Shown here piece by piece: positions 19,877-59,244 of a stretch of DNA of 64,000 bases. The stretch spans positions 1-64,000 of the forward strand of contig JAUIHW010000020.1 of NCBI GenBank assembly GCA_030431775.1, in the 5' to 3' direction. Under the pieces are notes generated by a model. The model worked only from the letters and a program-made list of their open reading frames with translations, did no database searches and was not told where the DNA came from. How positions within the stretch are numbered: the stretch's first letter is position 1; each line of letters begins with the position of its first letter. The position numbers and the translations under genes were made by a program. The DNA is from Gammaproteobacteria bacterium (GTDB lineage: Bacteria; Pseudomonadota; Gammaproteobacteria; Pseudomonadales; JAUIET01).

Positions 19877-20008
19877 CACTCGCTTCCTGTGACTGCCGGC
19901 GTGTCACACCGCAGTTTCGCTAATTATCTGAGTTTCATAGAGTTTATGGCTTAGCGCATGCGATTAAACGACATGGGAGTATACGTTCGCGACGCTAGCT
20001 GGGCCGGT

Positions 20009-35839: not shown

Positions 35840-35864
35840 CTACTCCCCAGAATGTGTGATTGGT

Positions 35865-37834: not shown

Positions 37835-38084
37835 GAGAGGGCCCTCGGAAAATGAAGTGTAAGCGAGATAAACTCTGCAACTTCCTAGTCTTCTAATCAT
37901 TGCACTAGAAACCGAATTCTAGACTAATCTGCGGAGATCTCAATGCTCGGTCATTCCTGAGATTGGCTGCACTCACCGGCATCAAACCTTTAGTTTACAT
38001 TTGCCATGGTTTTGTAAGCCAACGCTCACGTGATTTTCAGCACCTTAAGTTGCTTGGGGGTCGCATGAGCGTAAAAAAACGACA

Positions 38085-38126: not shown

Positions 38127-38807
38127 ATGATTATCTCGAACGAAAAAAAATTCATATTTTTTGCGTTTAATAAAACTGGCTCTACCAGTGTTGAGCAAGT
38201 GCTAAGTAAAGAAAATAGCAAACTCATTTCTGGTTACCTTTGGTTAAATTACAAACTGCTGTTGAGTGGTAAACGCCACTTCAAGCACGTCGATCCGCGA
38301 GACATAAAGCAAATCCTCGGAGCAAGACGCTGGGATAATTACTTTAAATTTACATTTGTCAGGAACCCCTGGAGCCGAGCTGTTTCGCTATACAACTATC
38401 ACCGGAAATCTGACCCGGCTAGATTCCCTTTGGCCCAAAAGTCCTTTAAAGAGTGGGTGCTTGGTGGAGGAACTGGAACCGCCAATCGGTCCATGTCAGA
38501 CTTCATCAGAGACGATAACGGTGCTTTGATACTGGACTTTGTAGGTAGGTATGAAACGCTCCAGCAGGATTTCTCTTACATCTGCAAGGAAATCGGCTTA
38601 CCCGACAGCCTTCTGCCGCATGCTAATCAATCGACCCGTGAGGATTATAGGAAGTACTACGATGATGAAACGCGCGAAATTGTGCGAAACTGGTGCAGCA
38701 CCGACATTGCTGAATTTGACTATCGATTCTGGGAGGATCAGTCGCGTAACACCGAGCTTCCTTCAGGCTTACCTAAGCAAGGCGATCAGTTTCTCGACGC
38801 TTCGTAA
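38127..38807 (+). CDS. Sulfotransferase (Sulfotransfer_2-like)
   Basis: A 226-residue cytoplasmic enzyme with the PAPS 5'-phosphosulfate loop FFAFNKTGSTSVEQVL near the N-terminus and the 3'-phosphate-binding FVRNPWSRAVSLYNYHRK. It is likely to transfer sulfate from PAPS to a carbohydrate. Divergent from the Wza block, and its 3' end overlaps the convergent GT4 gene by 39 bases. Family: sulfotransferases related to carbohydrate sulfotransferases. Confidence 0.88.
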   Translation: MIISNEKKFIFFAFNKTGSTSVEQVLSKENSKLISGYLWLNYKLLLSGKRHFKHVDPRDIKQILGARRWDNYFKFTFVRNPWSRAVSLYNYHRKSDPARFPLAQKSFKEWVLGGGTGTANRSMSDFIRDDNGALILDFVGRYETLQQDFSYICKEIGLPDSLLPHANQSTREDYRKYYDDETREIVRNWCSTDIAEFDYRFWEDQSRNTELPSGLPKQGDQFLDAS

Positions 38808-39875
38808 CGAGTTGTTTTTCTCGGTATAGTCTGCCGCCCTTCTGCCAATTTCTTCGCGCAAACCGCTGTTTTCAATTAGTTTACTAACGGCTTCTTTCAG
38901 CCCAGCATAGCTTTCACCAAGCATTCCCAACTTTTGGTCTTTGAGCAATCCATCAATATCAGCATACAGGCTGACAACTGGCACTCCTCGCTGCCATGCC
39001 TGCACATAAGTATTCGAGTAGCCTTCCGTCAAACTGGTATTAACAAGAATATGGCTCCTCGAAATCTCATAATTGACCCGGGACACATTCTGTTCGCCGA
39101 GAAAATGAAAGTTCTCTATCTTTTTTGCCCGATCCAGAAGAGTCTGATATCCCATCTGCAGCCCGGGTCTGCCGATCATTACAAACTCAATATCCTTTCT
39201 CGCAGAAAGATCCTCTGCCAATTGCACAAAAAGTTCGGGCTGCTTGACGGGCTTCAGGTTGGCCACCCAAATGATACGGATCGGTAAGGCATTGTGATTT
39301 GTTGATTCTTCAGGTGATGGCAGTATATTCTGAAAAACAGTGCACTCCTCTCTACCAAAATTCTTCAGCAATAAGTCGCGCTGTTTATTGGTCTGAACCA
39401 GGATATTGTCGGCATTTCCGATTGCATATCGCGCCAAGCGTTTTTCGATGGATTCCAGTATTTTCATCGGCCAACTTGTCGCAAAGAATTCTCCTGGCAT
39501 AAGGTCATAGTCACTTGCGACGTGATAAATAAATTGCTTCTTATGCCTTTTGGCATAGAACGCGCAATAGCCCGTATGGGCTGTAAGCGCATTCTGATAA
39601 ATAATGTCAGGGTTCAGCTCGCTTAGCGCTGACATAAGGTTAAAGTAATCAAATATCAGACTTTTTTTGTACAGCCAATGCTTGGGATCACTTATTTGCT
39701 TAACATCATATGACAATCCATGGCTTTCAGCCGGCGTACGATTGGCGAGATAGCAGACCGAATGATCTGTTCGCGTAGCCAACTGATCCGCAATAATACC
39801 CGCCTGAAAAGGAGCCCCTCCCATATTTGCTAGTGGATGGGATCTTAAAACAATAGCAATTACCCGTTTTTTCAT
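38769..39875 (-). CDS. Family 4 glycosyltransferase
   Basis: A 368-residue GT-B-fold glycosyltransferase. The donor half is recognisable by RIIWVANLKPVKQPELFVQL, FVMIGRPGLQMGY and SRSHILVNTSLTEGYSNTYVQ, where a Glu lies in the expected nucleotide-sugar motif. The N-terminal acceptor half has GGAPFQAGIIADQL. It adds a sugar to the polysaccharide unit; specificity is unknown. The 3' end overlaps the convergent sulfotransferase gene. Confidence 0.88.
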   Translation of the reverse strand: MKKRVIAIVLRSHPLANMGGAPFQAGIIADQLATRTDHSVCYLANRTPAESHGLSYDVKQISDPKHWLYKKSLIFDYFNLMSALSELNPDIIYQNALTAHTGYCAFYAKRHKKQFIYHVASDYDLMPGEFFATSWPMKILESIEKRLARYAIGNADNILVQTNKQRDLLLKNFGREECTVFQNILPSPEESTNHNALPIRIIWVANLKPVKQPELFVQLAEDLSARKDIEFVMIGRPGLQMGYQTLLDRAKKIENFHFLGEQNVSRVNYEISRSHILVNTSLTEGYSNTYVQAWQRGVPVVSLYADIDGLLKDQKLGMLGESYAGLKEAVSKLIENSGLREEIGRRAADYTEKNNSLRSVEKLIALLR

Positions 39876-40176
39876 TCAATGACTCTTGATTATATTGGTA
39901 AGCACATTTGATTTAGCATCCTTGCCAATGCACACAAATATCAACCGAACTCCATTACACACAGCTAGTTGCGGAAAACTAACCAAAGGAGTAAAGCATA
40001 GCAGCTTGATCTATACTCTACACTCTGCCATCGCAACCACAGAAAGTGCAGGACAATTACTAGCCATCATGATGATTGATTCTTTTTACAGTCTATGAAA
40101 TCAATTCTCTGACAAAGATCAAATTGCAAAAACCACTGCGTCGATAGAAAGTGATTTCATCAAGCTCAAATCTTCT
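39876..40176 (+). other. Gene-free AT-rich interval between GT4 and polymerase genes
   Basis: About 300 bases separating divergent starts. A 70-codon open frame at 39886-40098 has no family signal or ribosome site. No clear promoter pair, RNA or repeat was recognised. Confidence 0.5.
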
Positions 40177-41511
40177 ATGAATAATCAACCAAAAGAATCA
40201 ATGAGATTTACCCGGCTGACTATTTGGTTTGCATTCATATTGGCATACTCAGTTCCATTTTTAGCATTTAACAAATTGCTTCCAAATAGTGCCAGACATC
40301 TGACCGACCTCGGTGCAATATTCATTTTTATTGCATTGGTAGCGGAGGCTGTTAGAACCAGACAGTTTTTTTTGCCGGCTAAATACACTTTATTTGCGAT
40401 TTTTCTTATTATGGCGATAACGCTAAGCGCAATCGTAAGCGGCCAGAGCTTGGGGTCCTTATTGTTTGGAATTAAGATCTATTTTGTTTACATTCCTTAT
40501 TTTTTGTTGCCATTTGCAGTCAGATTCACTCATGGTGAGGTGCAAGGCTGGCTGACCTTTTTACTTTCTATCGCTATTCTTCAGCTTCCGTTGACCCTGT
40601 TCCAACGCTTTATTCAGTTTGGTGACAGAATGCACACAGGGGATTACATTACCGGTTTAATGGGTATATCCTCCTTCCTGTCAATTTTTTTGATTTGTGC
40701 GATCGCCCTAGTTAACGCTTACTATTTGCACAAAAAGATTTCGCTGATCAGTTTACTGGTTCTCACCGTCGTTTTCTTTCTCCCCACAACCATTAACGAA
40801 ACTAAAGGGACTCTATTTCTTCTTCCCCTGGCGCTGACAGTACCTGCTTTGATCTACGTATTGAGAAGCGGATCTCTGGCGAAATTCATTCCAGTTGCTT
40901 TGATTGGCGGACTATTTTTTACAGCCTTTGTCGCCATCTACAATCAGTTTGAGCAAGCGGTGTTTGACCGAACCCTCGCTGAGAAAGACCTTTTTGAATA
41001 TACTTTCAGGGACAGAGAGCAATTTAGAGATTCCAGTGAATCTCCGGTAGCCGCCCAGCGGAAATTGAATAAGACTGGGGAAACTGGCAGAGGCGACGCA
41101 ATACTCATCCCGCTTGAGGTCCTTTCGAGTGACGGTTTGCTCGCCTTCGGCAAAGGGCTGGGCAATATCACCCATACTACAGTTCCATTTTTCCTGGGCG
41201 ATGGCGATAAATATGAGCACCTGAAACCCACCTATAATGTGGTAAGCCGTGTACTATGGGAGCTGGGGCTGATTGGCGTGGTGTTGGCATTTACTATTGT
41301 AGGCCTCGTTACAGCGGACATCTGGTCGCTTTTACAGAGAACCGGGTTCGATGCCATGATTGCTACTGGCTGGCTTGGAGTTACTGCCGTGCTTGCCGCT
41401 TCTATGGTTTATAAAGACCTTATAAATGCGAATGTTCTGAGTGCACCCTTCTGGTTAATCACGGGGTACCTTTGCAGCTTGCAACAAAGCAGACCAGTCA
41501 GCAAAATATAA
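40177..41511 (+). CDS. O-antigen ligase/polymerase-like membrane protein (Wzy-like)
   Basis: A 444-residue polytopic membrane protein with roughly ten hydrophobic helices and a large hydrophilic loop (about residues 265-345). The segment FLPTTINETKGTLFLLPLAL is typical of EPS polymerases. It probably polymerises repeat units on the periplasmic face. It lies alone between oppositely oriented genes, and its GC content is low. Confidence 0.85.
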   Translation: MNNQPKESMRFTRLTIWFAFILAYSVPFLAFNKLLPNSARHLTDLGAIFIFIALVAEAVRTRQFFLPAKYTLFAIFLIMAITLSAIVSGQSLGSLLFGIKIYFVYIPYFLLPFAVRFTHGEVQGWLTFLLSIAILQLPLTLFQRFIQFGDRMHTGDYITGLMGISSFLSIFLICAIALVNAYYLHKKISLISLLVLTVVFFLPTTINETKGTLFLLPLALTVPALIYVLRSGSLAKFIPVALIGGLFFTAFVAIYNQFEQAVFDRTLAEKDLFEYTFRDREQFRDSSESPVAAQRKLNKTGETGRGDAILIPLEVLSSDGLLAFGKGLGNITHTTVPFFLGDGDKYEHLKPTYNVVSRVLWELGLIGVVLAFTIVGLVTADIWSLLQRTGFDAMIATGWLGVTAVLAASMVYKDLINANVLSAPFWLITGYLCSLQQSRPVSKI

Positions 41512-41574
41512 CCTTCATGTTTCTGCCGGCAAACCTTATCTTAATTGAAAAGCCAAGCCAGATAGAAACCTTTC

Positions 41575-42549
41575 TTAAGCCGAGCCGGAATCTATAGATT
41601 GCCAATAATCACGGAGCCACTCCTGTTCATCGGCGAAAAGTAATTCCAAATGATTCCGTAAATCGGGGGGAATGCTTGAGCCACTGGTTGGGTTGACTGG
41701 TCGGTCAAGCCTCGCTGTCACGTGCTCTGGAAGAGGTTCAGACGCTCCCAAATGATCAAGGATTCTTCGCACTAATTTTGCAGGTCTGTTCGCAATATCT
41801 TCATATTTTCCGATGAAAAGGGCACTTTCAGGCAAACAGTGTTGCCAGTTTTTGATCATTTTCGAATACTGGCCGCAAGCAATTTGATATTCTGCGTTGA
41901 AAAAGCTCATAAAGTCTTCGCTGGTTGGCGCTCTTTTTTTCCCATTATGCGCATCACGTACCAAATCTTTTTTGGCATGTGACCATGCCCTGTCAACGGG
42001 ATCTCTTACCATGAGTACAATTTTAATATTAGGGTTCAGCCTGACAATATCTTTAATCATCGACTGGGGCAATGTAGCATATGAAGCCGTAGCTTCCCCC
42101 ATCAGACCATCGCTACGCATCGGTGACTGTACCTTGCGTACCGTATCAATGGTACGTCTTAGGAAATCTGTTTCAAAGAATTTGGAATACCAACGTAGGT
42201 CATGCGCTCCAATCCCAAGTGTGCGAAATGAGTCAAAGTAGGCTATTTTAATCAGTTCCTTAAGGCCATATCCGGGCGAGCTAAGGGCTTGAGACAAAAC
42301 AAATGATTCCTTATGTAAGGATACTGGCAGGCTTTTCTCTGCCACTCTGTTAAAAAAATAGAGCTCTTTCGGGAAGGAAAATACAAGGTTGGGGTGCTCG
42401 CATAAATTGCTGTAAATCCATGTGGTACCGGTCCTTTGGGGGCCTACAATCAAGAAATCTGGAAAATTGATTACCTGCTTTTTGGGAGCAGTATGAACGT
42501 TGAAGTGGTTCAAATTAAGGCTGGCAATACTGTTTATATCAAGTTGCAT
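41575..42549 (-). CDS. Sulfotransferase domain protein
   Basis: About 324 residues from the ATG at 42549 (MQLDINSIASLN). The PAPS-binding loop is FLIVGPQRTGTTWIYSNL and the 3'-phosphate segment VLMVRDPVDRAWSHAKKDL, typical of PF00685-like sulfotransferases. It would sulfate a sugar or lipid carrier intermediate. It converges with the polymerase gene. Confidence 0.88.
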   Translation of the reverse strand: MQLDINSIASLNLNHFNVHTAPKKQVINFPDFLIVGPQRTGTTWIYSNLCEHPNLVFSFPKELYFFNRVAEKSLPVSLHKESFVLSQALSSPGYGLKELIKIAYFDSFRTLGIGAHDLRWYSKFFETDFLRRTIDTVRKVQSPMRSDGLMGEATASYATLPQSMIKDIVRLNPNIKIVLMVRDPVDRAWSHAKKDLVRDAHNGKKRAPTSEDFMSFFNAEYQIACGQYSKMIKNWQHCLPESALFIGKYEDIANRPAKLVRRILDHLGASEPLPEHVTARLDRPVNPTSGSSIPPDLRNHLELLFADEQEWLRDYWQSIDSGSA

Positions 42550-42884
42550 GTCAAAAGAAACTGATAAGCAAACACTGAAGTCTAGCAGCAAATCGCAAGC
42601 ATGATAGTCGGGCTGTTTAAAAGAGGGATGTGAAGCCTGTTGGCCAGGTCACAGCTTGTTTGATTTCCTTCCTCTACCACTGTGACTACTTTCAAAATTA
42701 GAAGAATTCCGGTTAGATAGTATCCTGAGTTAGCTCTACAATTAGCGTAGTTAAAGTCAACACATTGGTTGGTTGTAGGTAGTCCAGTCAAAGCTCAAGG
42801 TAAGGATTTGATTTGGTATTACTGTTGTAGTTGGCTAATCATTAACCGGTTGACTGCCAAACAAAACGGGATCAGGAACAGAAC
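42550..42884 (+). other. Gene-free interval upstream of the exported 420-residue protein
   Basis: About 335 bases without a supported gene. A 69-codon frame on the minus strand at 42582-42791 has no recognisable features. The region probably holds promoters for the two divergent genes, but I cannot define boxes. Confidence 0.5.
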
Positions 42885-44147
42885 ATGCTACCAGCTTTAT
42901 TGAGCTTAAAACGTCCTACTAGCCGAATCCTTTTGGTCGCGGCACTGTTGCTATCGGCAAATTGCTCTTCTGCAGATTATCCAGATGATATCAGACAAGT
43001 TACGGTGCTCGGCTATCAAGTAGACCGGCAAAACTGGAATCGGGGAAGCGACTGGTTTGAAAAAGCCTGGAAAAAGCATCATGCCACTATTTGGCGCGAC
43101 CAGAGAGAGGCCTATCGTTACCACAAACCAGTTGTAATGTTTCCATTCGAATGGAAACAGATTTATAACGATGATTCAATTACCCCTACATCTGAACAAG
43201 CGAGAGATCATAACTGGAAGAACTACCGTTGGAACAACGGCGGAGCAGATGACCCAATCGCCACGGCCAAGCAACACCCAAGAGTTAAAGCTGGTGATGC
43301 CGTAATCATCCCTAAAATAGGCTTCACTGCAACCGCAACTCCTTTTCCGATACCTAGATTTATTAAAGCGAATAAAGATTGGTGGTGGGGTGCTGGGAGC
43401 ACCAGTACCGGACCGGCATCACAGGAGTTTATTCGGCTGGATATTCCGGAAGTAAGGCAGCATGTCGAGAACGTGCTATATGCGATCACACAAAAATGGG
43501 GGTCAGACCCAGCGATAGCAATGTTTGTTTTTGGGGAATATTTTAACGGACCGGCTGAAGAGCACCCGCCGGGTTTTAACTCAACCAAGCATAAGGAGGC
43601 AGTAAAGACCATTCTTCGGAATGTCATAGCAAAAATGCCACGAGACAATAATAACAGAAGGCAAATGTTGGGCCTTGCCAGCCCTAATTTTGGTGGTAGC
43701 TTTATTCGTAAGGACATCATCACAATGGGCCTGGTTCCAGTCGAGTCAAACGTCGAACCACGCTTTCCGCCTGAGAGCTTCAAGCTAACTGAGGATCAGG
43801 TTTACTACGCCGAAAATGGCGCACATCTATTCTCGAAAGGGGATTCAAGATTTTATGATCTCGGCAAGAAATTTGATTGGAGCCGAGCTCCCGACAACCC
43901 TTTTGGCTATGGCCCGCATAGCAAGAATGTACCACTTACCGCGGAACAGTATATGTGGTACAGAACCCATATTATTCCGACTCAAAGCATAGTCTTCGGT
44001 ATTGGTCCTGGAGTGGGCCAAGAGGATATAGAATCGGCCATAAGAAAGTTTGGTAGAGGCGGCACCCAAGCAAACAATTGGGGTGGCAGTCCTAGAAAAT
44101 TGGAGATTGTCTCGCCGCCTGAGCCTCCGAGCATGACCTTTAATTAA
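42885..44147 (+). CDS. Exported protein of unknown family, possibly a TIM-barrel glycan-active enzyme
   Basis: A 420-residue protein with a signal peptide (RILLVAALLLSANCSSADYP, not a good lipobox because Asn precedes Cys). I do not recognise the family. Visible features: VVMFPFEWKQIYNDD, a Trp-rich KDWWWGAGS, IPEVRQHVENVLYAITQKWG followed by IAMFVFGEYFNGPAEEHPPG, in which a Glu follows a predicted beta strand, as acid/base residues do in TIM-barrel glycosidases. A later IVFGIGPGVGQEDIESAIRK could be another strand-end. The position in a sulfated-EPS locus suggests a periplasmic hydrolase, lyase or modifying enzyme; this is inference only. Confidence 0.75.
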   Translation: MLPALLSLKRPTSRILLVAALLLSANCSSADYPDDIRQVTVLGYQVDRQNWNRGSDWFEKAWKKHHATIWRDQREAYRYHKPVVMFPFEWKQIYNDDSITPTSEQARDHNWKNYRWNNGGADDPIATAKQHPRVKAGDAVIIPKIGFTATATPFPIPRFIKANKDWWWGAGSTSTGPASQEFIRLDIPEVRQHVENVLYAITQKWGSDPAIAMFVFGEYFNGPAEEHPPGFNSTKHKEAVKTILRNVIAKMPRDNNNRRQMLGLASPNFGGSFIRKDIITMGLVPVESNVEPRFPPESFKLTEDQVYYAENGAHLFSKGDSRFYDLGKKFDWSRAPDNPFGYGPHSKNVPLTAEQYMWYRTHIIPTQSIVFGIGPGVGQEDIESAIRKFGRGGTQANNWGGSPRKLEIVSPPEPPSMTFN

Positions 44148-44365
44148 GTGCTTAGTTTATTAATGCAGCTGGCTTACTGGTGCAGCGATTAGGATAGCAA
44201 AATCCGTATTTTCTTGCATCATCCCGGGTAAATTGATCCACATCATAATAAGGCTAAATTTATTCGCATCCATGTTCTGCAATCCGTTTGATGCCACTCT
44301 GGTAGTGTACTATATGCGATCATAGCCATCGGAGGCACTACCCCCAAGGTGGGTCGAGCGGACTG

Positions 44366-45046
44366 ATGATCCGACAGAACAAATACGTGAAGCTATTCAG
44401 GCAGCGCCTACGTAATAGGCGGGCTGAAATCTTTCTAAAGCTGCTTGATCAAATAGATGCTAGCGGAACCCTAAGAGTTTTGGACGTGGGTGGAACTATC
44501 AAGTACTGGAAGATGTTGCAGGCCAGCTTGAGTGATACAGAACTGAATTTGGATATCACTTTAGCAAACATAGGATCTGAAAAATCTGGAGAAATTACCA
44601 AGCTGGCTTTCGGAAGTGGGCGAGCAGCGCATATCAAGGAGATAGATGCTAATGCACTGGATCCAAACCTCTATGATTCTAAAAAATATGACGTTATTCA
44701 CTCCAATTCAGTCATTGAGCATGTCGGCAATTGGACACAAATCAAAGTGTTTGCGGACAATATTGTGCAATCAGGTTTACCCTACTTCATACAAACGCCT
44801 AACTTCTGGTTTCCTTTTGAACCGCATTTCGAACTGCCTTTTTTCATGCTATTGCCGTTGCCTCTAAAGCAAATTTTAATCAAACTAAAATTCGGAGGTG
44901 ACCTCGATAGCATTAATAAAAAGCTGGACGGTGTTCGACTACTGACGAGCTCAGAGTTTGAGTACCTATTTTGTAACGCAGAAATTCAACGTGAGAAAGT
45001 ATTGATGATTAACAAGAGTTTCATCGCGACTTTCGTCAGCAGCTAA
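44366..45046 (+). CDS. SAM-dependent methyltransferase-like protein
   Basis: A 226-residue protein with a class I methyltransferase core: LRVLDVGGTIKYWKML in the position of motif I and YDVIHSNSVIEHVGNW, a conserved motif of the Methyltransf_11/23 group. The N-terminal 30 residues are basic (KLFRQRLRNRRAE). It probably methylates a sugar residue. It is separated from neighbours by 218 and 139 bases, both without recognised features. Confidence 0.8.
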   Translation: MIRQNKYVKLFRQRLRNRRAEIFLKLLDQIDASGTLRVLDVGGTIKYWKMLQASLSDTELNLDITLANIGSEKSGEITKLAFGSGRAAHIKEIDANALDPNLYDSKKYDVIHSNSVIEHVGNWTQIKVFADNIVQSGLPYFIQTPNFWFPFEPHFELPFFMLLPLPLKQILIKLKFGGDLDSINKKLDGVRLLTSSEFEYLFCNAEIQREKVLMINKSFIATFVSS

Positions 45047-45185
45047 CTACAGCAGTATTAGCTAGGATTTGGCCACATTCTCCCCACTTTTTTGTATGCC
45101 CGCCGACATCCAGCCAACTTACTAATAGCTAAATACACCATCTACAACTAGACTATCTGGCAGGCTCAACAGTTTTCTACAAACA

Positions 45186-46145
45186 ATGGATTCAAAACAA
45201 AAAAATCCAAATAGTGTTCCAGACTTTATTGGTATCGGGGCAGCTCGCAGTGGCACAACTTGGCTGCACACTCAATTAAAAGCTCAGAAGGATGTCTGGC
45301 TTCCTCCGGTTAAAGAGGTGCATTATTTTGATAGAAGCCCAGACTACAATTCGCCAAACAAACTTGCCATTGAATCACCCGTAAGTAGAATATTGAACCC
45401 AGCCAATTGGGACGCCAGAACCTGCCTAAAGTTTCTGCGTGATGCTTCGCTGTCTTTGGCCAATCGAAACGACGCAAGCATTAGCTGGTGGTTAGATTGG
45501 TATCTAGGTAAATACAACGATACTTGGTATCGGAAGTTGTTTTTAGAGCGCAAAGAAGCCTTGAAGGGGGAAATTACACCAGCGTATGGAATTCTTGATA
45601 AAAAGGACATACAGAAGATTTATCAATTGAATCCCAAAATAAAGCTAATCTATCTATTAAGAAACCCAATTGAGAGGGACTGGTCTTCTCTCCGCAAAAG
45701 TGTCGATCGCGGACATCTGACTCTGGATCTTACCTCGATTCATGAAATTAAGAATACCTTAATCCAGCAACAAACAGCAGACCGAAGTGACTATCTGAAA
45801 ACTATTAGTCATTATCTTGAAGTGTTCCCAGCCGACCAGCTCCTCATTGGCTTTTATGAAGCGATCAACGATGCGCCAGGCAAATTGCTCGAGGAAATAA
45901 TGGCCTTCCTGGGAGTGGAGCCGTTAGCGATTAACTTTTCCTTATTGAGCAGTAAGATCAATGCCTCGCCAAAAGTAGAGATCCCCATAGAGATTCAGAA
46001 GCTGCTAAGCGAAAACCATGAGAAGACAATAAAAGAAGTGCAGCGTGTTATAGGTAGCTATTCAAATGATTGGTTAGGAGATATTTTAGAAGAAGACAGA
46101 AGTACTAGCCTAGCCACTGTTCGTGCGGATCAATTGCAATTTTAG
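45186..46145 (+). CDS. Sulfotransferase domain protein
   Basis: A 319-residue PF00685-like sulfotransferase: FIGIGAARSGTTWLHTQLKA binds the 5'-phosphosulfate of PAPS, and LIYLLRNPIERDWSSLRKSV the 3'-phosphate. Third of five sulfotransferases in this locus. The 3' end overlaps the convergent GT4 gene by four bases. Confidence 0.9.
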   Translation: MDSKQKNPNSVPDFIGIGAARSGTTWLHTQLKAQKDVWLPPVKEVHYFDRSPDYNSPNKLAIESPVSRILNPANWDARTCLKFLRDASLSLANRNDASISWWLDWYLGKYNDTWYRKLFLERKEALKGEITPAYGILDKKDIQKIYQLNPKIKLIYLLRNPIERDWSSLRKSVDRGHLTLDLTSIHEIKNTLIQQQTADRSDYLKTISHYLEVFPADQLLIGFYEAINDAPGKLLEEIMAFLGVEPLAINFSLLSSKINASPKVEIPIEIQKLLSENHEKTIKEVQRVIGSYSNDWLGDILEEDRSTSLATVRADQLQF

Positions 46146-47263: not shown

Positions 47264-47295
47264 CGCCTTATCTACCGTAATTATTTGGAAGCTTG

Positions 47296-48525
47296 TTAAT
47301 TATCGATATCGCCGAACTCTTTATATATTTTGATAAGTCGATCTACATACTTCTCTGATGTGAATTCATTTTCCACCCAACTGCACCCGAATCTACCTAA
47401 CTCGGCAATATCCTCAGTTGGCATTTCTTCAATTCGTACTAATGCATTAGCAAGATCTTCTTCATCACCGGCCCTGAAAAGTAAGCCAGAATGATTGCTA
47501 TCAATAAGTTCAGGAATTCCCCCGATATTGGCGCCGATTACGGGCTTACCCAATGCATACGCTTCCATGATGGATATTGGTGCATTTTCGTACCATTCTG
47601 ATGGCAGAACTACACACTTCGACCCAGCAATCACACGATGCAGTTCATCTCCAGTCTGATACCCAAGGAAAGTGATGTCTGCACCGCTAGAAGAGGCCAG
47701 TTGCTGCATTCGATTTAGCTCCGGGCCGGCTCCCGCGATGTGCAATTTTACGCCCGCCTTAGCCGCTGAACGAATAAGTGTGTCAACACCTTTTTCTTCA
47801 GCTAATCGCCCAAAATAAAGAAAATAATCCCCTGGTTCGAAATTGGGTCTAAAGCTTGATGAGTCAACAAAATTTGGGACGTAAACGAAACGCTCGGCGG
47901 GCCAGCCCCATTCAATTAGTTTGTCTTTGTAAAACTTACTCGGAACAACAAATTTTGTTACGTGTTTCTCATAGCTAGAAAGTAACTTGTGCAAACGTGC
48001 TTCTAAATACGCGAGGCCGCTGACGAGTAGAGATCCTTTAAGACATCTATTTCTGATGACCTCCGACAGCCGGCCTCCTTTACAACGCTCACAAACACCT
48101 TTGCTATTCAGCATTTTATAGGCTGGGCAAGCTATTTTCAGATCATGTAGTGTCAAAAAAATAGGCACATTGTGCTGTTTTAATGTCGTTAAAATTGATG
48201 GCGAAATATGGTGATAAATATTGTGACAGTGAGCAATGTCTGGCTTTGTTGCAGCAACTAATTCACTTACCTTTTTCTTGGCCTCAAAGGAGTACAGAGT
48301 TTTAGGTGCAAGTTGAATTTTTTCCCATAAAGAATAGTCTTCTCCAAATTCTATTTCGTCAACAAAGTACTCTTCCCAATCTGATGAGAGATTTTTAGAA
48401 TGTTGCATGCAAAACGTAACAACTTCCCAATCGGTCTGAGCAAACAATCTATTTTGCTCCAAAAATACAACTTCTGCGCCACCGCGCGGATAATGATAGT
48501 TATTGATGCTTAACAGTTTTGGCAT
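47296..48525 (-). CDS. Family 4 glycosyltransferase
   Basis: A 409-residue GT4 enzyme. It starts LSINNYHYPRGGAEVVFLEQ, the acceptor-side glycine motif, and has FGRLAEEKGVDTLIRSAAK, LHIAGAGPELNRM and WYENAPISIMEAYALGKPV in the donor half. A cysteine cluster in the N-terminal half (CPAYKMLNSKGVCERCKGG) is found in some members of this group. Gap of 24 bases after the sulfotransferase gene. Confidence 0.92.
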   Translation of the reverse strand: MPKLLSINNYHYPRGGAEVVFLEQNRLFAQTDWEVVTFCMQHSKNLSSDWEEYFVDEIEFGEDYSLWEKIQLAPKTLYSFEAKKKVSELVAATKPDIAHCHNIYHHISPSILTTLKQHNVPIFLTLHDLKIACPAYKMLNSKGVCERCKGGRLSEVIRNRCLKGSLLVSGLAYLEARLHKLLSSYEKHVTKFVVPSKFYKDKLIEWGWPAERFVYVPNFVDSSSFRPNFEPGDYFLYFGRLAEEKGVDTLIRSAAKAGVKLHIAGAGPELNRMQQLASSSGADITFLGYQTGDELHRVIAGSKCVVLPSEWYENAPISIMEAYALGKPVIGANIGGIPELIDSNHSGLLFRAGDEEDLANALVRIEEMPTEDIAELGRFGCSWVENEFTSEKYVDRLIKIYKEFGDIDN

Positions 48526-48549
48526 GAATCTAAACTCGGGTGGGCAGTA

Positions 48550-49506
48550 TCACTCGTAGCCTAACTGTATATTTAGAGCTCTCGCATGCCGTCCAAAAAA
48601 TTCCAGATCTTCAGCTGACATTTCAGTTTTCCAGCTAGTATCTAGTTTTATCTCTGAAGTTTGGGCAAATCTCATATTATTTCCGTTCGTAATATGAACC
48701 TGGTTGTCCCTGAAATTCATCATTGATGACTCGTAGTCGATGTTCATAAAATCACAAATCTTCCGCATAGCGGCTGTGGGATCTTGTGCAAGCTCTTCAT
48801 ATTTTACTTTCAGCATATGGCTAGCCTTTATATGCTTAGTTAGTACAGGAACAGCACGACGATAGGTATTGGTCCACGCTGATAGAGACTTCTTTCGGCT
48901 AAAGCCGCGTTTCAAGCCAGAATAAAATACAGCACGCCCGTCCCTAACCAGAAATATAATGCGAGTATTTTCCTGGGATTGCTTGTACAAACTAAGCGCT
49001 TCCAGGTAGTGCTTGGAAGAATCAACTACCCAGTCGGATTCAGTATAATCGCGTATCGCTGAAAATAAGGTAACTTTATTTGCCGCCCCCTCATGGATTT
49101 TCGCAACAAACTGCTGCGGTACAATTAAACCATAACGATACTGTAAAAACTGCAGTGCATAAGCCAAGCGGCGCTTCAGGTTCATCCAATTAGTCTGATG
49201 CTTACGATCAACTACTACTCGAGCATTAATATACCCAAGATTCAGTTGATATGGATCTTGTCTAATATCTGCTCCCAATGCCTCCTGGACAATATTTAGG
49301 ATGTCGCACCAAAACTTGCATGAAAGCACAGGTTCTCCACAACAGCACTGTGTATTGAGAGCCAGGTTTTTTGGTAAATGAGTTATTTCTCCTAATGACT
49401 CAACCTTTGAATGAGCGCCAAGTAATAAATCTAGCAACGTAGAGCCAGAATGCCCGGCAGAACATATGAATACAGTACCCTTGGTATGAGTCTGGTTGAG
49501 CATCAT
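48550..49506 (-). CDS. Sulfotransferase family protein
   Basis: A 318-residue protein with the PAPS-binding FICSAGHSGSTLLDLLLG and the 3'-phosphate segment IIFLVRDGRAVFYSGLKRG. Related to Sulfotransfer_3-like proteins. A cluster of cysteines near residues 52-69 (TQCCCGEPVLSCKFWC) is notable and may bind metal or form a structural site. It begins a leftward unit with two GT4 genes. Confidence 0.87.
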   Translation of the reverse strand: MMLNQTHTKGTVFICSAGHSGSTLLDLLLGAHSKVESLGEITHLPKNLALNTQCCCGEPVLSCKFWCDILNIVQEALGADIRQDPYQLNLGYINARVVVDRKHQTNWMNLKRRLAYALQFLQYRYGLIVPQQFVAKIHEGAANKVTLFSAIRDYTESDWVVDSSKHYLEALSLYKQSQENTRIIFLVRDGRAVFYSGLKRGFSRKKSLSAWTNTYRRAVPVLTKHIKASHMLKVKYEELAQDPTAAMRKICDFMNIDYESSMMNFRDNQVHITNGNNMRFAQTSEIKLDTSWKTEMSAEDLEFFGRHARALNIQLGYE

Positions 49507-49748
49507 TGTTACTACTCAAAAATACTAATAATAGTACAGATTATTCCTTGTTGGCCGTCGATTCACCACATATTCTTAACTAGAAACACGACATAGGAAA
49601 ATGGCTGACGGTAATAACTCTTGAAGTCAATTCCAGCTCGTAATGAAGACAACTCGAATTTTGTTCAATGGATGGAGATGTAGACAAGGACATCGAAAGA
49701 CACAGTAGGTACCCACTCCATGATCTGTAAGGAAATCAGCTTCTCACG

Positions 49749-51191
49749 ATGAAAAACAAGATAATTCGGGGGGTAAAATGGGCTTTCGCCGAACAGGCTG
49801 GCGTCCAAATTATCTCCTTCCTGGTATTCCTGCTCCTTGCTAGAGTGCTTGGGCCAACGGCCTTTGGCCTGATAGCTTTGAGCCAGGCGTTTGTCATGTT
49901 TATTACACAAACAGTTCAACAAGGCTTTTCCACAGTAATCATACAGCGAGGCGAGCTGGATGATATGCATGTACAAACTGCGTTCTGGTCAAACCTTATA
50001 TTGTCACTAGTTGCAATAATAGGAGTTCAGCTACTAGCTCCGACGATTGCTCGGGTGTTCAACGAACCTGAACTAGAGGCACTGATGCGGGTACTCTGCG
50101 TTATCTTTGTCTTAACTCCGGTATGGACAATACAGCAGGCTTTGTTTAGGAGGAATCTACAATTCAAGCCTCTAGCCGTACAATCTATTTCAGCATCGAT
50201 GATAGGCAATTTGGTTGCGGTGATTATGGCATTAAACGGTTATGGCGTTTGGAGTCTGGTAGGTCGTGAGATAGTCAGAGTATTGGTTGCGAGCATGCTG
50301 TTGTGGCGTCGCAGCGATTGGCGGCCTAGGCTACAGTTTTCAATTGACAAGTTCATTGAGCTTTGGCAGTACTCGGCGCATGTGATTTGGGGAAATATCA
50401 TTCTCTTCTGTAGCTTGAAGGCAGATAGCCTGATTATAGGATTCGGTCTAGGTTCGAAGGAGCTTGGATATTATCATGTTGCAATGCGATTGATCGCGCT
50501 GCTAAATCAGTTGATATCCCGCACTATTGAAAAAGTCGCCATGCCCGTGTTTTCAAGGTTGCAGGCTGATATACAGCAACTCCGTCAGGCATTTGGCACA
50601 GCAAATCAGTATTCTGCCCTAATAATACTTCCAGTATTCGCAGGTATTGCTCTAACGGTTACTGAGTTTGTGCCCGTAGTTTTTGGAGACAGATGGGATC
50701 CAAGCATTCCTGTAATGCAGGTGCTTCTGATAGCGGGAATCATGCAAAGCTTAATTTATAACAATATTGCATTGGTTATGGGCCTTGGGAAACCTCAAAT
50801 CAGGACCAAGATCATCACCATTGAAGCTGCATTGAAAGTCAGCTTTCTGTTGTTAGCAGTAAGTTATGGATTGATCGCAACCGCGATCGCTGTTGTTGCT
50901 GTCACGCTGATAACCTACCCAATCTGGGTGTTCTCGGCAATACGAATACTCCAGACTCAAATGACTAAGTTTATTTTTTACTTCATCCCTGCTGTCACTT
51001 CTACATTAGTAATGGCAGCAGCTGTAACAGCGGGGAAATACTTTTTGCAAGGTACGGTGCTGGCTATGGAAGTTCTGCTTCTGATCTCTGTTACTGTTGG
51101 TTTTGCAGCTTACACATTATCAACATTGTTGTTGTTTCCCAGACTGTCTAGAGAAATTATAGGAAATATAAATACTGGTAAAGCCAAGTAA
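49749..51191 (+). CDS. Polysaccharide flippase (Wzx-like, MOP superfamily)
   Basis: A 480-residue integral membrane protein with about 12-14 hydrophobic helices. The start GVKWAFAEQAGVQIISFLVF and ARVLGPTAFGLIALSQAFV match PST-type flippases of the MOP family. It would move lipid-linked repeat units from cytoplasm to periplasm. A 242-base region precedes it, with no other supported gene. Confidence 0.92.
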   Translation: MKNKIIRGVKWAFAEQAGVQIISFLVFLLLARVLGPTAFGLIALSQAFVMFITQTVQQGFSTVIIQRGELDDMHVQTAFWSNLILSLVAIIGVQLLAPTIARVFNEPELEALMRVLCVIFVLTPVWTIQQALFRRNLQFKPLAVQSISASMIGNLVAVIMALNGYGVWSLVGREIVRVLVASMLLWRRSDWRPRLQFSIDKFIELWQYSAHVIWGNIILFCSLKADSLIIGFGLGSKELGYYHVAMRLIALLNQLISRTIEKVAMPVFSRLQADIQQLRQAFGTANQYSALIILPVFAGIALTVTEFVPVVFGDRWDPSIPVMQVLLIAGIMQSLIYNNIALVMGLGKPQIRTKIITIEAALKVSFLLLAVSYGLIATAIAVVAVTLITYPIWVFSAIRILQTQMTKFIFYFIPAVTSTLVMAAAVTAGKYFLQGTVLAMEVLLLISVTVGFAAYTLSTLLLFPRLSREIIGNINTGKAK

Positions 51192-51216
51192 GCAAAATAC
51201 AGAAGTTTTAGCAAGA

Positions 51217-53217
51217 TTAAAGGTTGGATGTGTTGTGTTTTGCCTTGATAAAAAATACATCTATCGTATTATCCTTGCTGGTATACACAATAAATTCTGG
51301 ATAATTCTCTCTAAAAAATGTCAAAGGTTCCCCATTCCATTCCTCAGAAAAGGTAACGAGCCAGACGTCATCCGATGCTTCGGATATAACATCGATAACA
51401 TCCCGTTCACGATACAGCAAGGGGAGATCAGTCCATATATCCAGACCTACTGTTGACACATTTCGTTCCCAGAATCGATTTGAACTATGCGGAATATAGA
51501 TGAAATGAGGTCGCTGCTCAAAGTAGATGTCGGCAGGTGTTGGTGCGAAAATTACCAGATCATTTGGCCGCCTGTGTTGGTTCAAATAATCTATGGGGGA
51601 TTCAAAATCTCGCCGCGGTAAAAGATGATTAGCCATGCTATGAGAATAATTCTGCCGATAAATCACCTGGTCCGTGTTGATTTGCAGAAGGTGAGCGTAG
51701 CTGTAGTCTCTAGAGATAACCATGAACGCAACCAGGAAGACCATCATTCCTATCTCTCGAGTTCGTTTTCTAACTTGGAAACGCTGGAATACCAGGTTGA
51801 CTGAAGAAGTAGATGAAATCAAAAATAGTGGATAGAAAAAGAAAGAGTATCTGCTTATTGTCTGATGGGTGCCTGTTACCGAGACAAATAGAATGCAGAC
51901 AATTATAAAAATATAAAGGAATCTCGATGCAGGGTTTTTCTCGTTATTATTAATAATCGTCAAAAACAAACCAATCGCCGTAGTGAGCGCTATAACCGTA
52001 AGTGCTATGGGTACTGAGCGAAACATTGGTGCTGCAAAACGGGGCACAATTTCCGGGAAATTGAAAAGAATAGTAAGCCCCTGCTTCAAACAATCAGGTT
52101 GTTTTTTTACGTTCATGCCTCCAGTCATCAGCCCACACCAATCATCGTTAAATGAAAGGTAACCTACATAGAAAAAAAGCACTATCAGTAAAGGTGCGAA
52201 AAGTAATGCGCCATATTCGGCTATGAGATCAATCAACGATTGACTTCGCTTGGTAGCCAATAAAAGCCCAATGAGTGTAATGGCAAGCGACAATGTGAAC
52301 AAGTTAATAACAGCAGCTACCAGGGACACGGTGAACAAAAGTGGAACTGCCAAGTTAGCGTGATTTCTAGCCCATAGTCGAACGATTGCGTAAAGCACGA
52401 AGAGTGCAGCAAGCGCCAGGGTGGTTGTAGCCGGGATGGAATCAAATATGATTGGAATCAGAATCGGTGGCAGAATTGCAGAAACACCCGGAATTTTATT
52501 ATTTAATGCCGCTAAATCAGCTGGGGATACTGGTTGAGGATAAGGAACACCAAACCTCCAGTATATGAATACCACCACACCAAATCCAATAAGAGCAAAA
52601 TACCAGCCTGCTTTGAATCGTTTTTCGAGAAATGCGGGTACCAAACAAAACAGCAGTAAAAGTAGACTTGCGGCATAAACAAGTATTCCAAAACAGGCTA
52701 GCAGCGCGCAAAAAATCAGAGATCTTTCATGCTTATCAACTACCGCCTTAAACCAGAATACTAAATAAGTTAGAAATAGCAGTTGAAAAGGCGCGTACAT
52801 TCTCGCAAATCTGGCAAACTCTGTTTCCCATAGTGAAAGGGCAAATAATATTACAGATGCACCAGCAACTAACGGCCCGCCCATCCTTTTAGCAAGCAAA
52901 TACAGAGGCAAAATACAAAGGACATTGCACATTGCGGGTATCAGTCGCACCGCGAATTCAAGGTCCATGGGCACCAGCCATAGCAGACCTGCAGTTAAAT
53001 ATTGCTGAGCCAGGCCACGTGTGTAGTAACCACCGCCAGGAAACTCGGGAACACCGCTGCTTAAGATAAAATGAATTGATTTCGCCAGGTAGTATTCGTC
53101 ATCAATCAGAGGTGCAATCCCCAGCCCTGAAAATCTCGCCCAGACGCCAACACCTATGGCAAGGAGAACCGGGAGAAAAAAAAACGATCGGAATTCTTGA
53201 AGTTCTAATTTGCTCAT
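51217..53217 (-). CDS. GT39/PMT-like membrane glycosyltransferase
   Basis: A 666-residue GT-C protein with about a dozen hydrophobic helices and a hydrophilic C-terminal third. The acidic motif in the first periplasmic loop is APLIDDEYYLAKS, the expected D-E position of ArnT/PMT-type enzymes, which use polyprenyl-phosphate sugars. The GtrB-like protein encoded at 24070 could supply such a donor. It starts seven bases after the upstream GT4 stop, so the two are co-transcribed. Confidence 0.88.
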   Translation of the reverse strand: MSKLELQEFRSFFFLPVLLAIGVGVWARFSGLGIAPLIDDEYYLAKSIHFILSSGVPEFPGGGYYTRGLAQQYLTAGLLWLVPMDLEFAVRLIPAMCNVLCILPLYLLAKRMGGPLVAGASVILFALSLWETEFARFARMYAPFQLLFLTYLVFWFKAVVDKHERSLIFCALLACFGILVYAASLLLLLFCLVPAFLEKRFKAGWYFALIGFGVVVFIYWRFGVPYPQPVSPADLAALNNKIPGVSAILPPILIPIIFDSIPATTTLALAALFVLYAIVRLWARNHANLAVPLLFTVSLVAAVINLFTLSLAITLIGLLLATKRSQSLIDLIAEYGALLFAPLLIVLFFYVGYLSFNDDWCGLMTGGMNVKKQPDCLKQGLTILFNFPEIVPRFAAPMFRSVPIALTVIALTTAIGLFLTIINNNEKNPASRFLYIFIIVCILFVSVTGTHQTISRYSFFFYPLFLISSTSSVNLVFQRFQVRKRTREIGMMVFLVAFMVISRDYSYAHLLQINTDQVIYRQNYSHSMANHLLPRRDFESPIDYLNQHRRPNDLVIFAPTPADIYFEQRPHFIYIPHSSNRFWERNVSTVGLDIWTDLPLLYRERDVIDVISEASDDVWLVTFSEEWNGEPLTFFRENYPEFIVYTSKDNTIDVFFIKAKHNTSNL

Positions 53218-53224
53218 TGGGAAC

Positions 53225-54427
53225 TCATAGCAGATCTTTCATAGCTGACTCCACGACGTTCGCAATCTTGCTGTAAGTGCGGTTTGCCATCACATATTCT
53301 TTTCCACGACGACCCATATCGTTTCGCTTACAGGGATCTTCCAGCAAATATAGGATAGCATCTGAGAATGCCTTCTCTTCGTATGGCACGCAAAGCCCAC
53401 CCTGGCTGCGCTCAATCACGAGACTCTGTTCTGGATGGTCATTAGCGACAACGACCTTGCCCATTGCCATATATTCAATAAGTTTGGTCGGTGATGTAGA
53501 GTTCAGTATAGGTGTCGGATAAAAAGGTGACAGGCAGACTTTCGCTCGCTGTACATATTTTAGGGCTTCATCCTGCGGCAGAAACCCAGTTATTGTTACT
53601 GCATTACTTACGCTTAATTCCTGGGCTGCATCAAGTATTTGTTGAGTATCCGCGTCTGCTTCACCGTCGCCAACAAAAATCAGGTTTACATTAGGCTTAG
53701 TTTTTCTAACTTCGGCTAATACACGGACCAGGAAATCCATTCTTCTGGCACCAAGAAGAGTACCGAGATACAGTAAATCGATGTCTTCAGAATTTTTGGA
53801 GCTGTCAGAAAATGCCATTGATCGAAACTTCTCCTCCGAAAAGCCCATTGGTACAGCGGTCATTTTTGTAAGGTCTGCACCGCGAGATTGAAGGTCTTTT
53901 TTCATTTGCTCACTTTGACAGAAAAGATGTTCACACTGATAGACTATGAAACGATAAAGTGCAATATCAAATAACCATCCTCTTATTCGATAAAGAATTG
54001 GATATCGCGCTGTTCCTGTTTTTGCCTCATAAAGTGAAGCTTCAGGAAATGGGTATGAGAGCCAATATATGAACTTGGCAGGCCTATGTCTGCAGGTTAA
54101 GCCGGCGACGATTGCCGCAAGGAACTTATCCTTTACCAATATAAAATCGTAAGCGTTTTCTCGAGACAAGCGAAGCATCCTGCAGTCATTGAGAAAACTG
54201 TACCAGTGCTTACGAAGTCTATTCCACAATCTTTCTCCTGCATCCGTGCGACCTACATATACAGTGGACCCAGACCAAGTTGTGGTAAAGCTTTCATCGC
54301 ATTGTTCCTCAGAATGTAAAAGCCAGTCTACTGTATGCCCCCTGGAAACCATTTCCTTGCCAAAAAGCTCGGTAACATCAACCCGAAAGGGTGGATATTT
54401 ATCAGACGAAATGAAGAGGATATTCAC
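53225..54427 (-). CDS. Family 4 glycosyltransferase
   Basis: A 400-residue GT-B enzyme: ILFISSDKYPPFRVDVTELF at the start, and in the donor half LLYLGTLLGARRMDFLVRVL, LIFVGDGEADADTQQIL and LIEYMAMGKVVVANDH. The start overlaps the upstream sulfotransferase stop by four bases. It probably transfers a sugar in repeat-unit assembly. Confidence 0.9.
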   Translation of the reverse strand: MNILFISSDKYPPFRVDVTELFGKEMVSRGHTVDWLLHSEEQCDESFTTTWSGSTVYVGRTDAGERLWNRLRKHWYSFLNDCRMLRLSRENAYDFILVKDKFLAAIVAGLTCRHRPAKFIYWLSYPFPEASLYEAKTGTARYPILYRIRGWLFDIALYRFIVYQCEHLFCQSEQMKKDLQSRGADLTKMTAVPMGFSEEKFRSMAFSDSSKNSEDIDLLYLGTLLGARRMDFLVRVLAEVRKTKPNVNLIFVGDGEADADTQQILDAAQELSVSNAVTITGFLPQDEALKYVQRAKVCLSPFYPTPILNSTSPTKLIEYMAMGKVVVANDHPEQSLVIERSQGGLCVPYEEKAFSDAILYLLEDPCKRNDMGRRGKEYVMANRTYSKIANVVESAMKDLL

Positions 54428-55269
54428 AAATTATCCCACTGCTTAGCAGGGTCTAACAACTTTTTACACGCACTCAAATAAGCGTCAGCGCACTGAACGT
54501 CGATTATGTTAGTTTCAGCATCCCCCAAACGATTTGCCTTATTGGTACTGGAAGAATGAATCAAGTCGCAATAACTGGACTCATATTTGAGCTTGGCAAA
54601 GTCAAACAATATGGGTAAATGAGTCTTCGGAGCCATGACGAGTGAGTCATAGTCGACTACCAGCAAGCATTCCGCACTCAACCGACTTCCAATTTCATGC
54701 ATTTGGGAAATCTTGGCATTGTACGAAGCACAGGCTTTTTCGACCCTTCTCAATAATTTTTCAGACTCCTCGTCTTGAATGTGTCTATCAAAATGAATGC
54801 CGCACGCGTCGTAAAGCTCGTTAAATGCATACCGGTCCCAATTGTATAGCATGGAGTAAATAACAGACCTTGGGTTTCTCAAAACCCAAACTAATTTAAA
54901 TTCTTTTTGTTGTTCAAAATACTCAACATATCGATCATTTAAATAAGTGGTTTGAAAGCAATATCTCCGGGACCTATCCGCATGCTCCCTACCCGCCAGT
55001 ATAAGAGCTGCATCCAGTTCTTCATCATGGCTAATCCAGAAATTACCAAGTCTGCCTCCTTGGGTTAACAAACGGCTTATCGCCGTTGTGCCCGAACGCT
55101 GGCAACCGGCAACAAGTATCGAATCAGAGTACTGATAAAGGTTTACCAACAGACCGCTTTTCTGAGTTCGCACCTCACGAGCGAACCTCTGCCACGTTCT
55201 GATTCGACCAAAGTAATCTGTATGCTCTCTAAGCCATTTTCTAACTACTACAGGCCGCATAGTCGTCAT
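54424..55269 (-). CDS. Sulfotransferase-like protein
   Basis: About 281 residues from the ATG at 55269 (MTTMRPVVVRKWL); earlier starts would overlap the priming transferase gene. The 5'-phosphosulfate loop is ILVAGCQRSGTTAISRLL and LVWVLRNPRSVIYSMLYNW resembles the 3'-phosphate motif. Fifth sulfotransferase in the locus and in the same transcription unit as the initiating sugar transferase, so it is probably linked to the core repeat unit. Confidence 0.85.
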   Translation of the reverse strand: MTTMRPVVVRKWLREHTDYFGRIRTWQRFAREVRTQKSGLLVNLYQYSDSILVAGCQRSGTTAISRLLTQGGRLGNFWISHDEELDAALILAGREHADRSRRYCFQTTYLNDRYVEYFEQQKEFKLVWVLRNPRSVIYSMLYNWDRYAFNELYDACGIHFDRHIQDEESEKLLRRVEKACASYNAKISQMHEIGSRLSAECLLVVDYDSLVMAPKTHLPILFDFAKLKYESSYCDLIHSSSTNKANRLGDAETNIIDVQCADAYLSACKKLLDPAKQWDNL

Positions 55270-59227: not shown

Positions 59228-59244
59228 GATCAACCTGTCGCTTA

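What the first reader, a model, noticed from the sequence alone, without database searches (positions are those of the whole stretch)
38127..55269. Five sulfotransferases in one EPS locus: probable sulfated polysaccharide
Genes at 38127, 41575, 45186, 48550 and 54424 each carry PAPS-loop motifs. They differ enough to suggest separate positions or sugars. A densely sulfated bacterial exopolymer from a gammaproteobacterium would be uncommon and might resemble marine algal glycans.
Basis: partly seen in the sequence, partly recalled or inferred. Interest (0 to 1): 0.65.

Follow-up and report, generated by a model that had tools for sequence, protein, structure and literature searches.

The report
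Swappable cassette for a sulfated exopolysaccharide
A sugar-polymer gene locus in this bacterium carries five different sulfate-adding enzymes inside an exchangeable cassette, so the cell very probably coats itself with a heavily sulfated polysaccharide, a kind of polymer well known from animals and seaweeds but documented in few bacteria.

Summary
Genes at 38127, 41575, 45186, 48550 and 54424 are intact PAPS-type sulfotransferases (STs): all exceed Pfam cut-offs and carry both PAPS-binding motifs. They are mutually very divergent. They lie in a Wzx/Wzy-type EPS locus with XrtA-type export genes but no exosortase in the genome.

Three things were added. (1) A same-genus genome has the same locus and flanks, but everything between wza and the PHPT gene, all five STs included, is replaced by an ST-free cassette with UDP-sugar dehydrogenase, lyase and acylation genes. 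(2) ST48550 plus GT4 glycosyltransferases recur with other STs in EPS loci of two Gammaproteobacteria MAGs and a Desulfobacterales MAG (2 to 6 STs each), which ties them to a shared, sulfated core oligosaccharide. (3) STs are about as many as predicted backbone sugars (5 to 5 or 6), against 2 STs to 8 glycosyltransferases for synechan.

Best reading: cytoplasmic sulfation of the lipid-linked repeat unit before flipping, giving regular, dense sulfation. Likeness to algal glycans is untested. Sulfated EPS is known, so this is a new variant of a known kind.

The parts
38127..38807 (+). Sulfotransferase 1 (Sulfotransfer_2 family; PSB at 38169, 3'-PB at 38361)
   Evidence: PF03567 E 3e-13, 50.9 bits over cut-off 22; motifs; about 30% identity to paralogues on contigs C49 and C42
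38769..39875 (-). GT4 glycosyltransferase
   Evidence: PF00534/PF13692; 38% and 35% identity to genes in the SZUA-140 and T3Sed10 loci
40177..41511 (+). Probable Wzy polymerase (11 predicted TM segments)
   Evidence: No Pfam hit; hydropathy, and homologues at 33% and 28% (24% in G368) in the related EPS loci
41575..42591 (-). Sulfotransferase 2 (heparan-ST-like Sulfotransfer_3/1; PSB at 42441, 3'-PB at 42006)
   Evidence: PF13469 6.5e-20; PDB hits 3rnl and HS N-/3-O-sulfotransferases; 43% identity to an ST in the T3Sed10 locus
42885..44147 (+). Orphan protein with a hydrophobic N-terminus; guessed to be an exported glycan-processing enzyme
   Evidence: No Pfam, NCBIfam or PDB hit; no relative in 369 genomes of the class; fold prediction failed, pLDDT 31; role inferred only from hydrolases or lyases sitting in equivalent cassettes
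44366..45046 (+). Methyltransferase-like (possible sugar O-methylation)
   Evidence: Weak PF13489 1.3e-4, below cut-off
45186..46145 (+). Sulfotransferase 3 (same branch as 41575; PSB at 45240, 3'-PB at 45660)
   Evidence: PF13469 3.6e-11; 27% identity to 41575; A3 profile close to HS 3-OST/NDST
46142..47263 (-). GT4 glycosyltransferase, shared core
   Evidence: PF13439/PF00534; 52% SZUA-140, 44% Desulfobacterales, 28% G368; 47% to a T3Sed10 ORF
47296..48525 (-). GT4 glycosyltransferase, shared core
   Evidence: PF00534; 56%, 53%, 50%, 35% identity in four other loci
48550..49506 (-). Sulfotransferase 4, shared core (PSB at 49455, 3'-PB at 48945)
   Evidence: PF13469 2e-20; 43-45% identity in three other EPS loci; model pLDDT 76.5, and the Foldseek hits at E<=0.001 are all sulfotransferases or the related retinol dehydratase
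49749..51191 (+). Wzx flippase
   Evidence: PF13440 9.4e-81; 10 TM segments
51217..53217 (-). PMT_2-type (GT-C) membrane glycosyltransferase, possible side-branch sugar
   Evidence: PF13231 28.6 bits vs 26.1; 12 TM segments
53225..54427 (-). GT4 glycosyltransferase, shared core
   Evidence: PF00534; 54%, 48%, 40%, 39% identity in four other loci
54424..55269 (-). Sulfotransferase 5 (start at 55269; PSB at 55104, 3'-PB at 54879)
   Evidence: PF13469 42.1 bits; 44% and 37% identity in SZUA-140 and Desulfobacterales
55302..56735 (-). PHPT initiating sugar-phosphate transferase; right edge of the exchangeable cassette
   Evidence: PF02397, TIGR03025 421 bits over cut-off; 80% identical in congener G750
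37187..37900 (-). Wza-type OPX export protein; left edge of the cassette
   Evidence: PF02563 85.5 bits; TIGR03027 138.7, below its cut-off of 180; 59% in G750
35865..37112 (-). Outer-membrane beta-barrel (BBP2_2-like)
   Evidence: PF10082 weak; only 27% identical in G750
34370..35839 (-). PCP chain-length determinant (XrtA type)
   Evidence: TIGR03007 207 bits, below its cut-off of 279; 30% in G750
33534..34334 (-). Tyrosine autokinase (XrtA type)
   Evidence: TIGR03018 157.5 bits, below its cut-off; 51% in G750
32577..33467 (-). XrtA-associated ATPase
   Evidence: TIGR03015 315.8 bits vs cut-off 324.5; 89% in G750

Best explanation
The segment 38127-55301 is an exchangeable repeat-unit cassette of a Wzx/Wzy-dependent EPS (or capsule) locus. 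The PHPT at 55302 loads the first sugar on undecaprenyl phosphate, and four GT4 enzymes (46142, 47296, 53225, 38769) extend it in the cytoplasm. The five STs, which carry no obvious export signal, transfer sulfate from cytoplasmic PAPS to different positions of this lipid-linked oligosaccharide. Wzx (49749) flips it, the Wzy-like protein (40177) polymerises it, a GT-C enzyme (51217) may add a branch, and the PCP, OPX and barrel proteins export it. Because sulfation happens per repeat unit, the polymer should be regularly and densely sulfated, up to about one sulfate per sugar. Shown: the genes, motifs, ST fold of one member (predicted), PAPS-synthesis genes, cassette exchange, and recurrence of the ST/GT core. 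Inferred: activity, acceptors, order of steps, sulfate content.
For: Pfam and motif identification of five STs; ST fold of 48550; the 41575/45186 profile matches HS 3-OST/NDST at E about 1e-14 to 5e-19, against about 1e-7 for SULTs. EPS gene set. PAPS supply: Sat, APS kinase. Cassette exchange in the congener with conserved flanks and no STs. Same core (ST48550, GT47296, GT53225, mostly with GT46142) with 2 to 6 STs in SZUA-140, Desulfobacterales and T3Sed10, and a more distant version in G368. Clustering far above chance within the genome. Precedent: synechan, where two STs sit in a Wzx/Wzy cluster and sulfate is measured at 2 per 8 sugars (PMC8205485).
Against: No biochemical data. No characterised homologue of 48550 or 54424, and no PDB relative of 54424 by profile. 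Wzy is assigned only by topology and homologues. PAPS genes lie elsewhere in the genome and also serve sulfur assimilation (CysH). Export proteins fall below the XrtA equivalog cut-offs and no exosortase is present. Acceptors could be lipids or LPS.
Confidence: 0.8

Rival explanations
1. The cassette makes a sulfated O-antigen/LPS or cell-bound capsule rather than a released EPS; enzymology is the same, only the final anchor differs.
For: Wzx/Wzy/PHPT genes alone do not decide; sulfated O-antigen is proposed elsewhere (the Vibrio KMM 8419 O-antigen operon has an ST; PMC11641403).
Against: OPX protein, PCP with tyrosine kinase, and outer-membrane barrel lie next to the cassette, typical of EPS/capsule export; no dedicated LPS ligase was identified in the cassette.
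Confidence: 0.2
2. Only some of the five STs act on the polymer; others sulfate glycolipids or small molecules, or are remnants of earlier cassettes.
For: The genome has about 33 ST genes in all, mostly on other contigs; the five are on both strands; 38127 and 45186 have no close counterpart in the related cassettes.
Against: All five are intact with both PAPS motifs; all five lie inside the exchanged segment; 48550, 54424 and 41575 each recur at 37-45% identity in other EPS cassettes.
Confidence: 0.3
3. The locus is not expressed or the polymer is unsulfated, the STs being decayed or differently employed.
For: No expression data; the cassette has GC 0.42-0.45 against about 0.54 in the flanks and could be a recent arrival.
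Against: All frames are open and motifs intact; the congener's cassette in the same place has similarly low GC, so low GC is a property of the locus.
Confidence: 0.06

Closest known systems
xss cluster / synechan of Synechocystis PCC 6803 (PMC8205485)
   Same: Wzx/Wzy-dependent EPS cluster with STs of different subfamilies and multiple GTs; measured sulfate matches ST number.
   Different: 2 STs to 8 GTs there; 5 STs to 4 GT4 + PHPT (+ GT-C) here; different phylum; here XrtA-type export genes and an exchangeable cassette.
wps-1 cluster of Actinoplanes missouriensis (PMC13390465)
   Same: Wzx/Wzy cluster with two STs of different families, one heparan-ST-like, a methyltransferase and a glycoside hydrolase; sulfation only predicted there too.
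   Different: 2 STs; Gram-positive actinomycete, so no outer-membrane export.
Sulfated CPS clusters of Vibrio sp. KMM 8419 and Cobetia marina KMM 1449 (PMC11641403, PMC11766843)
   Same: Marine Gammaproteobacteria with sulfated surface polysaccharide of solved structure; ST and PAPS genes in the cluster.
   Different: ABC-transporter export; three STs spread over an 80-gene region in the Vibrio; PAPS genes inside the cluster, unlike here.
XrtA/PEP-CTERM (EpsH) EPS loci
   Same: ATPase, tyrosine kinase, PCP and OPX proteins match TIGR03015/03018/03007/03027.
   Different: All below the curated cut-offs, and no exosortase in a 98.3% complete genome.
Heparan sulfate 3-O- and N-sulfotransferases
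   Same: 41575/45186 profile matches them best among solved eukaryotic STs.
   Different: Distant, bacterial, substrate unknown; no heparosan synthase was seen.

Membership tests
PAPS-dependent sulfotransferase superfamily | Curated family score reached by all five proteins | tested here: met
   All above Pfam gathering scores for PF03567, or PF13469 and PF00685
PAPS-dependent sulfotransferase superfamily | 5'-PSB loop and 3'-PB Arg/Ser motif | tested here: met
   Both present in all five; kept in homologues of 48550 and 54424, apart from RDG reading KDA in one row
PAPS-dependent sulfotransferase superfamily | Sulfotransferase fold | tested here: met
   Only for 48550: pLDDT 76.5, Foldseek best E 2e-7 to tyrosylprotein STs
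PAPS-dependent sulfotransferase superfamily | Sulfate transfer to a polysaccharide | not testable with these tools
   Needs enzyme assays
Wzx/Wzy-dependent EPS locus | PHPT, Wzx, OPX | tested here: met
   PF02397, PF13440, PF02563 over cut-offs
Wzx/Wzy-dependent EPS locus | PCP (Wzz/GNVR, TIGR03007) | tested here: inconclusive
   Clear homology (TIGR03007 E 2.8e-61) but below curated cut-offs
Wzx/Wzy-dependent EPS locus | Wzy polymerase | tested here: inconclusive
   40177 has 11 predicted TM segments and homologues in related loci, but no family hit
XrtA/PEP-CTERM system | Exosortase (PF09721) | tested here: not met
   No match in the whole genome
XrtA/PEP-CTERM system | Associated ATPase, kinase, PCP, OPX | tested here: inconclusive
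   Best matches are the XrtA models but all below cut-off
Sulfated EPS producer (synechan-like) | PAPS synthesis genes | tested here: met
   ATP sulfurylase C57, APS kinase C106
Sulfated EPS producer (synechan-like) | Sulfate measured in the polymer | not testable with these tools
   Needs chemistry
Heparan-type sulfotransferases (HS3ST/NDST) | Sequence relationship closer than to SULTs | tested here: met
   A3 profile: HS3ST/NDST E about 1e-14 to 5e-19, SULT about 1e-7
Heparan-type sulfotransferases (HS3ST/NDST) | Acts on a glucosamine/uronate chain | not testable with these tools
   Acceptor unknown

The most novel reading that the evidence does not exclude
Bacteria of at least two phyla share a transferable GT4/ST module that builds a core oligosaccharide sulfated at nearly every sugar, and related strains of one genus switch the same EPS locus between a sulfate-charged polymer and one of acetylated-uronate type by swapping the cassette: serotype-like switching of the charge chemistry itself.
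Probability: 0.4. Interest if true: 0.7.

Novelty: new variant of a known kind. Interest (0 to 1): 0.5.

Why it matters
Bacterial polysaccharide sulfotransferases with known acceptors are few, and papers still call sulfated EPS rare in bacteria or even exclusive to cyanobacteria (PMC13390465, PMC8205485). A single Wzx/Wzy cassette with five divergent STs, three of which recur beside related glycosyltransferases elsewhere, gives matched enzyme/acceptor pairs to test, and a possible biosynthetic source of regularly sulfated polymers. The congener with an ST-free cassette in the same locus is a natural control for what sulfate adds.

Tried and rejected
Exosortase-based protein sorting as the context: rejected, no PF09721 in the genome. 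Absence of PAPS synthesis: rejected. 42885 as a known hydrolase or lyase: no sequence hit, and single-sequence AlphaFold failed (pLDDT 31.5), so left as a guess. PDB profile for 54424: nothing. Surveys with the 48550 profile: 6 of 369 genomes of the class (this genome included) at E<=1e-25 and, at the stricter 1e-40, 1 of 398 of the phylum (this genome itself), so the subfamily is rare and patchy. Plasmid search: only remote relatives of 48550 on S. meliloti pSymB (28%), none for 54424. The class hits G045, G186 and G197 share only the ST at 25-27%, not the GT core at comparable identity.
Full report
Observation. Pfam assigns 38127 to Sulfotransfer_2 and the other four to Sulfotransfer_3/Sulfotransfer_1, all above the gathering scores. 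Each contains a 5'-PSB loop and a 3'-PB motif in the right order. Pairwise BLASTP aligns only 41575 with 45186 over their length (27%), so the five are divergent lineages, not recent duplicates. The genome holds about 33 ST genes in all; five within 17 kb has a Poisson probability of 2e-7, about 5e-5 after allowing for the number of windows.

Surroundings. The locus runs leftward from PHPT (55302) through GT4 enzymes at 53225, 47296, 46142 and 38769, Wzx 49749, a PMT_2-type GT-C 51217, a Wzy-like membrane protein 40177, and then OPX 37187, barrel 35865, PCP 34370, tyrosine kinase 33534 and ATPase 32577. The last group is nearest to the XrtA/PEP-CTERM EPS models but below their cut-offs, and no exosortase is found in the 98.3% complete genome. 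GC falls from about 0.54 to 0.42-0.49 across the region.

Sulfate donor. The genome encodes a homomeric ATP sulfurylase, an APS kinase and one CysH-type reductase carrying an ECGIH motif near its end (reading it as a PAPS rather than APS reductase is from general knowledge of the family). PAPS can therefore be made; the genes are not in the EPS locus.

Exchangeable cassette. The only congener held, G750, has the same locus on C17. Flanking genes match mostly at 48-86% and the ATPase at 89%; kinase 51%, OPX 59% and PHPT 80%; but PCP is 30% and the barrel 27%, and everything between OPX and PHPT is unrelated apart from weak matches typical of large families. The replacement holds a UDP-glucose/GDP-mannose dehydrogenase, an asparagine-synthase-like enzyme, heparinase II/III-like and polysaccharide-lyase proteins, a weak GDSL match, an acyltransferase and a Wzy_C polymerase. 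A 468-aa protein there reads like an MBOAT acyltransferase (my reading of the sequence printed). No ST is found by Pfam, by motif, or by profiles of the ST groups. The divergence of PCP and barrel together with the cassette suggests co-adaptation to the polymer (inference).

Recurrence elsewhere. A genome scan with ST48550 found three loci at 43-45% identity. Fetched more fully, they are EPS loci sharing a core with the window: GT47296 (35-56%), GT46142 (44-52%), GT53225 (40-54%), ST48550 (43-45%), with ST54424 in two, ST41575 in one, and the Wzy-like protein in two. A class member, G368, has a more distant version. ST numbers: SZUA-140 five firm plus one weak, Desulfobacterales six, T3Sed10 two on a short contig, G368 three. 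The Desulfobacterales locus has an exosortase gene and a GH5 hydrolase. The core therefore occurs in two phyla as an ST-plus-GT unit, the best evidence here that these STs act on what these GTs make. In the surveyed class the 48550 family is rare: 6 of 369 genomes.

Relationship of the STs. 48550: modelled with four sequences (pLDDT 76.5), best Foldseek hits tyrosylprotein STs at E 2e-7; the hits at E<=0.001 are all STs or the related retinol dehydratase. 41575/45186: profile closest to a bacterial ST (3rnl) and then heparan 3-O- and N-STs, well ahead of SULTs; this is a resemblance and does not show a heparan-like acceptor. 38127: Sulfotransfer_2, whose seed consists mostly of chondroitin and heparan STs (PMC11625862).

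Mechanism. PAPS is cytoplasmic (established knowledge) and none of the five STs shows an obvious export signal, so they should act before Wzx. Predicted backbone: PHPT sugar plus four GT4 sugars, possibly one GT-C branch; five STs give up to about one sulfate per sugar. In synechan eight GTs and two STs match the measured 8 sugars to 2 sulfates (PMC8205485), so gene counts can track stoichiometry. One ST deletion there left bloom formation and EPS amount unchanged, so a missing ST need not show as a loss of polymer.

Known comparisons. Synechan, Actinoplanes wps-1, and the Vibrio and Cobetia sulfated capsules are the nearest. A full-text search for papers holding sulfotransferase, exosortase and polysaccharide together found only the synechan paper, so I found no prior description of a multi-ST, XrtA-type cassette in the held library; the library is incomplete. 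The algal-glycan analogy has no support beyond sulfation.

Limits. No chemistry, no expression data, one congener, few related loci, some on draft contigs; ST activity, acceptors and sulfate density are inferred.

Noticed in passing
G000 contig C49, about 13.9-33.4 kb (L036, L037): A second sulfotransferase-rich glycan locus in the same genome: STs at about 14.0 and 32.7 kb, a weak one at 22.9 kb, a 1219-aa protein fusing an ST with GT2 and GT4 domains, plus a sulfatase (PF00884) and an MBOAT gene.
   Followed up: partly
G750 C17 about 326.5-343.6 kb (L082, L083): Alternative cassette at the same EPS locus in a congener: UDP-sugar dehydrogenase, heparinase-like and lyase-like proteins, amidotransferase, acylation genes, no ST.
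   Followed up: yes
window 34370-37112: PCP (30%) and outer-membrane barrel (27%) diverge strongly between congeners although the neighbouring ATPase is 89% identical, suggesting they are fitted to the polymer.
   Followed up: partly
window 42885-44147: Orphan 420-aa protein with a hydrophobic N-terminus and no significant relative in the libraries searched or in 369 genomes of the class.
   Followed up: partly
L070/L071 (Desulfobacterales MAG contig) 474-20483: EPS locus with six STs, an exosortase fused to a DUF3485 domain, a radical SAM/SPASM protein and a GH5 hydrolase.
   Followed up: partly
L075 (S. meliloti pSymB, CP073680 763300-782193): EPS-like locus with two annotated sulfotransferases next to chain-length, polymerase/ligase-type and GT4 genes; one ST is a remote relative (28%) of 48550.
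   Followed up: no
window 16943-19879: MTTB-family methyltransferase next to a B12-binding corrinoid protein and a DUF1638 protein: an ordinary-looking methylamine/betaine-type demethylation set.
   Followed up: no
window 57742-59739: Vut_1 transporter and 6-pyruvoyl tetrahydropterin synthase-like gene beside a short-chain dehydrogenase; looks like a queuosine or pterin salvage neighbourhood.
   Followed up: no
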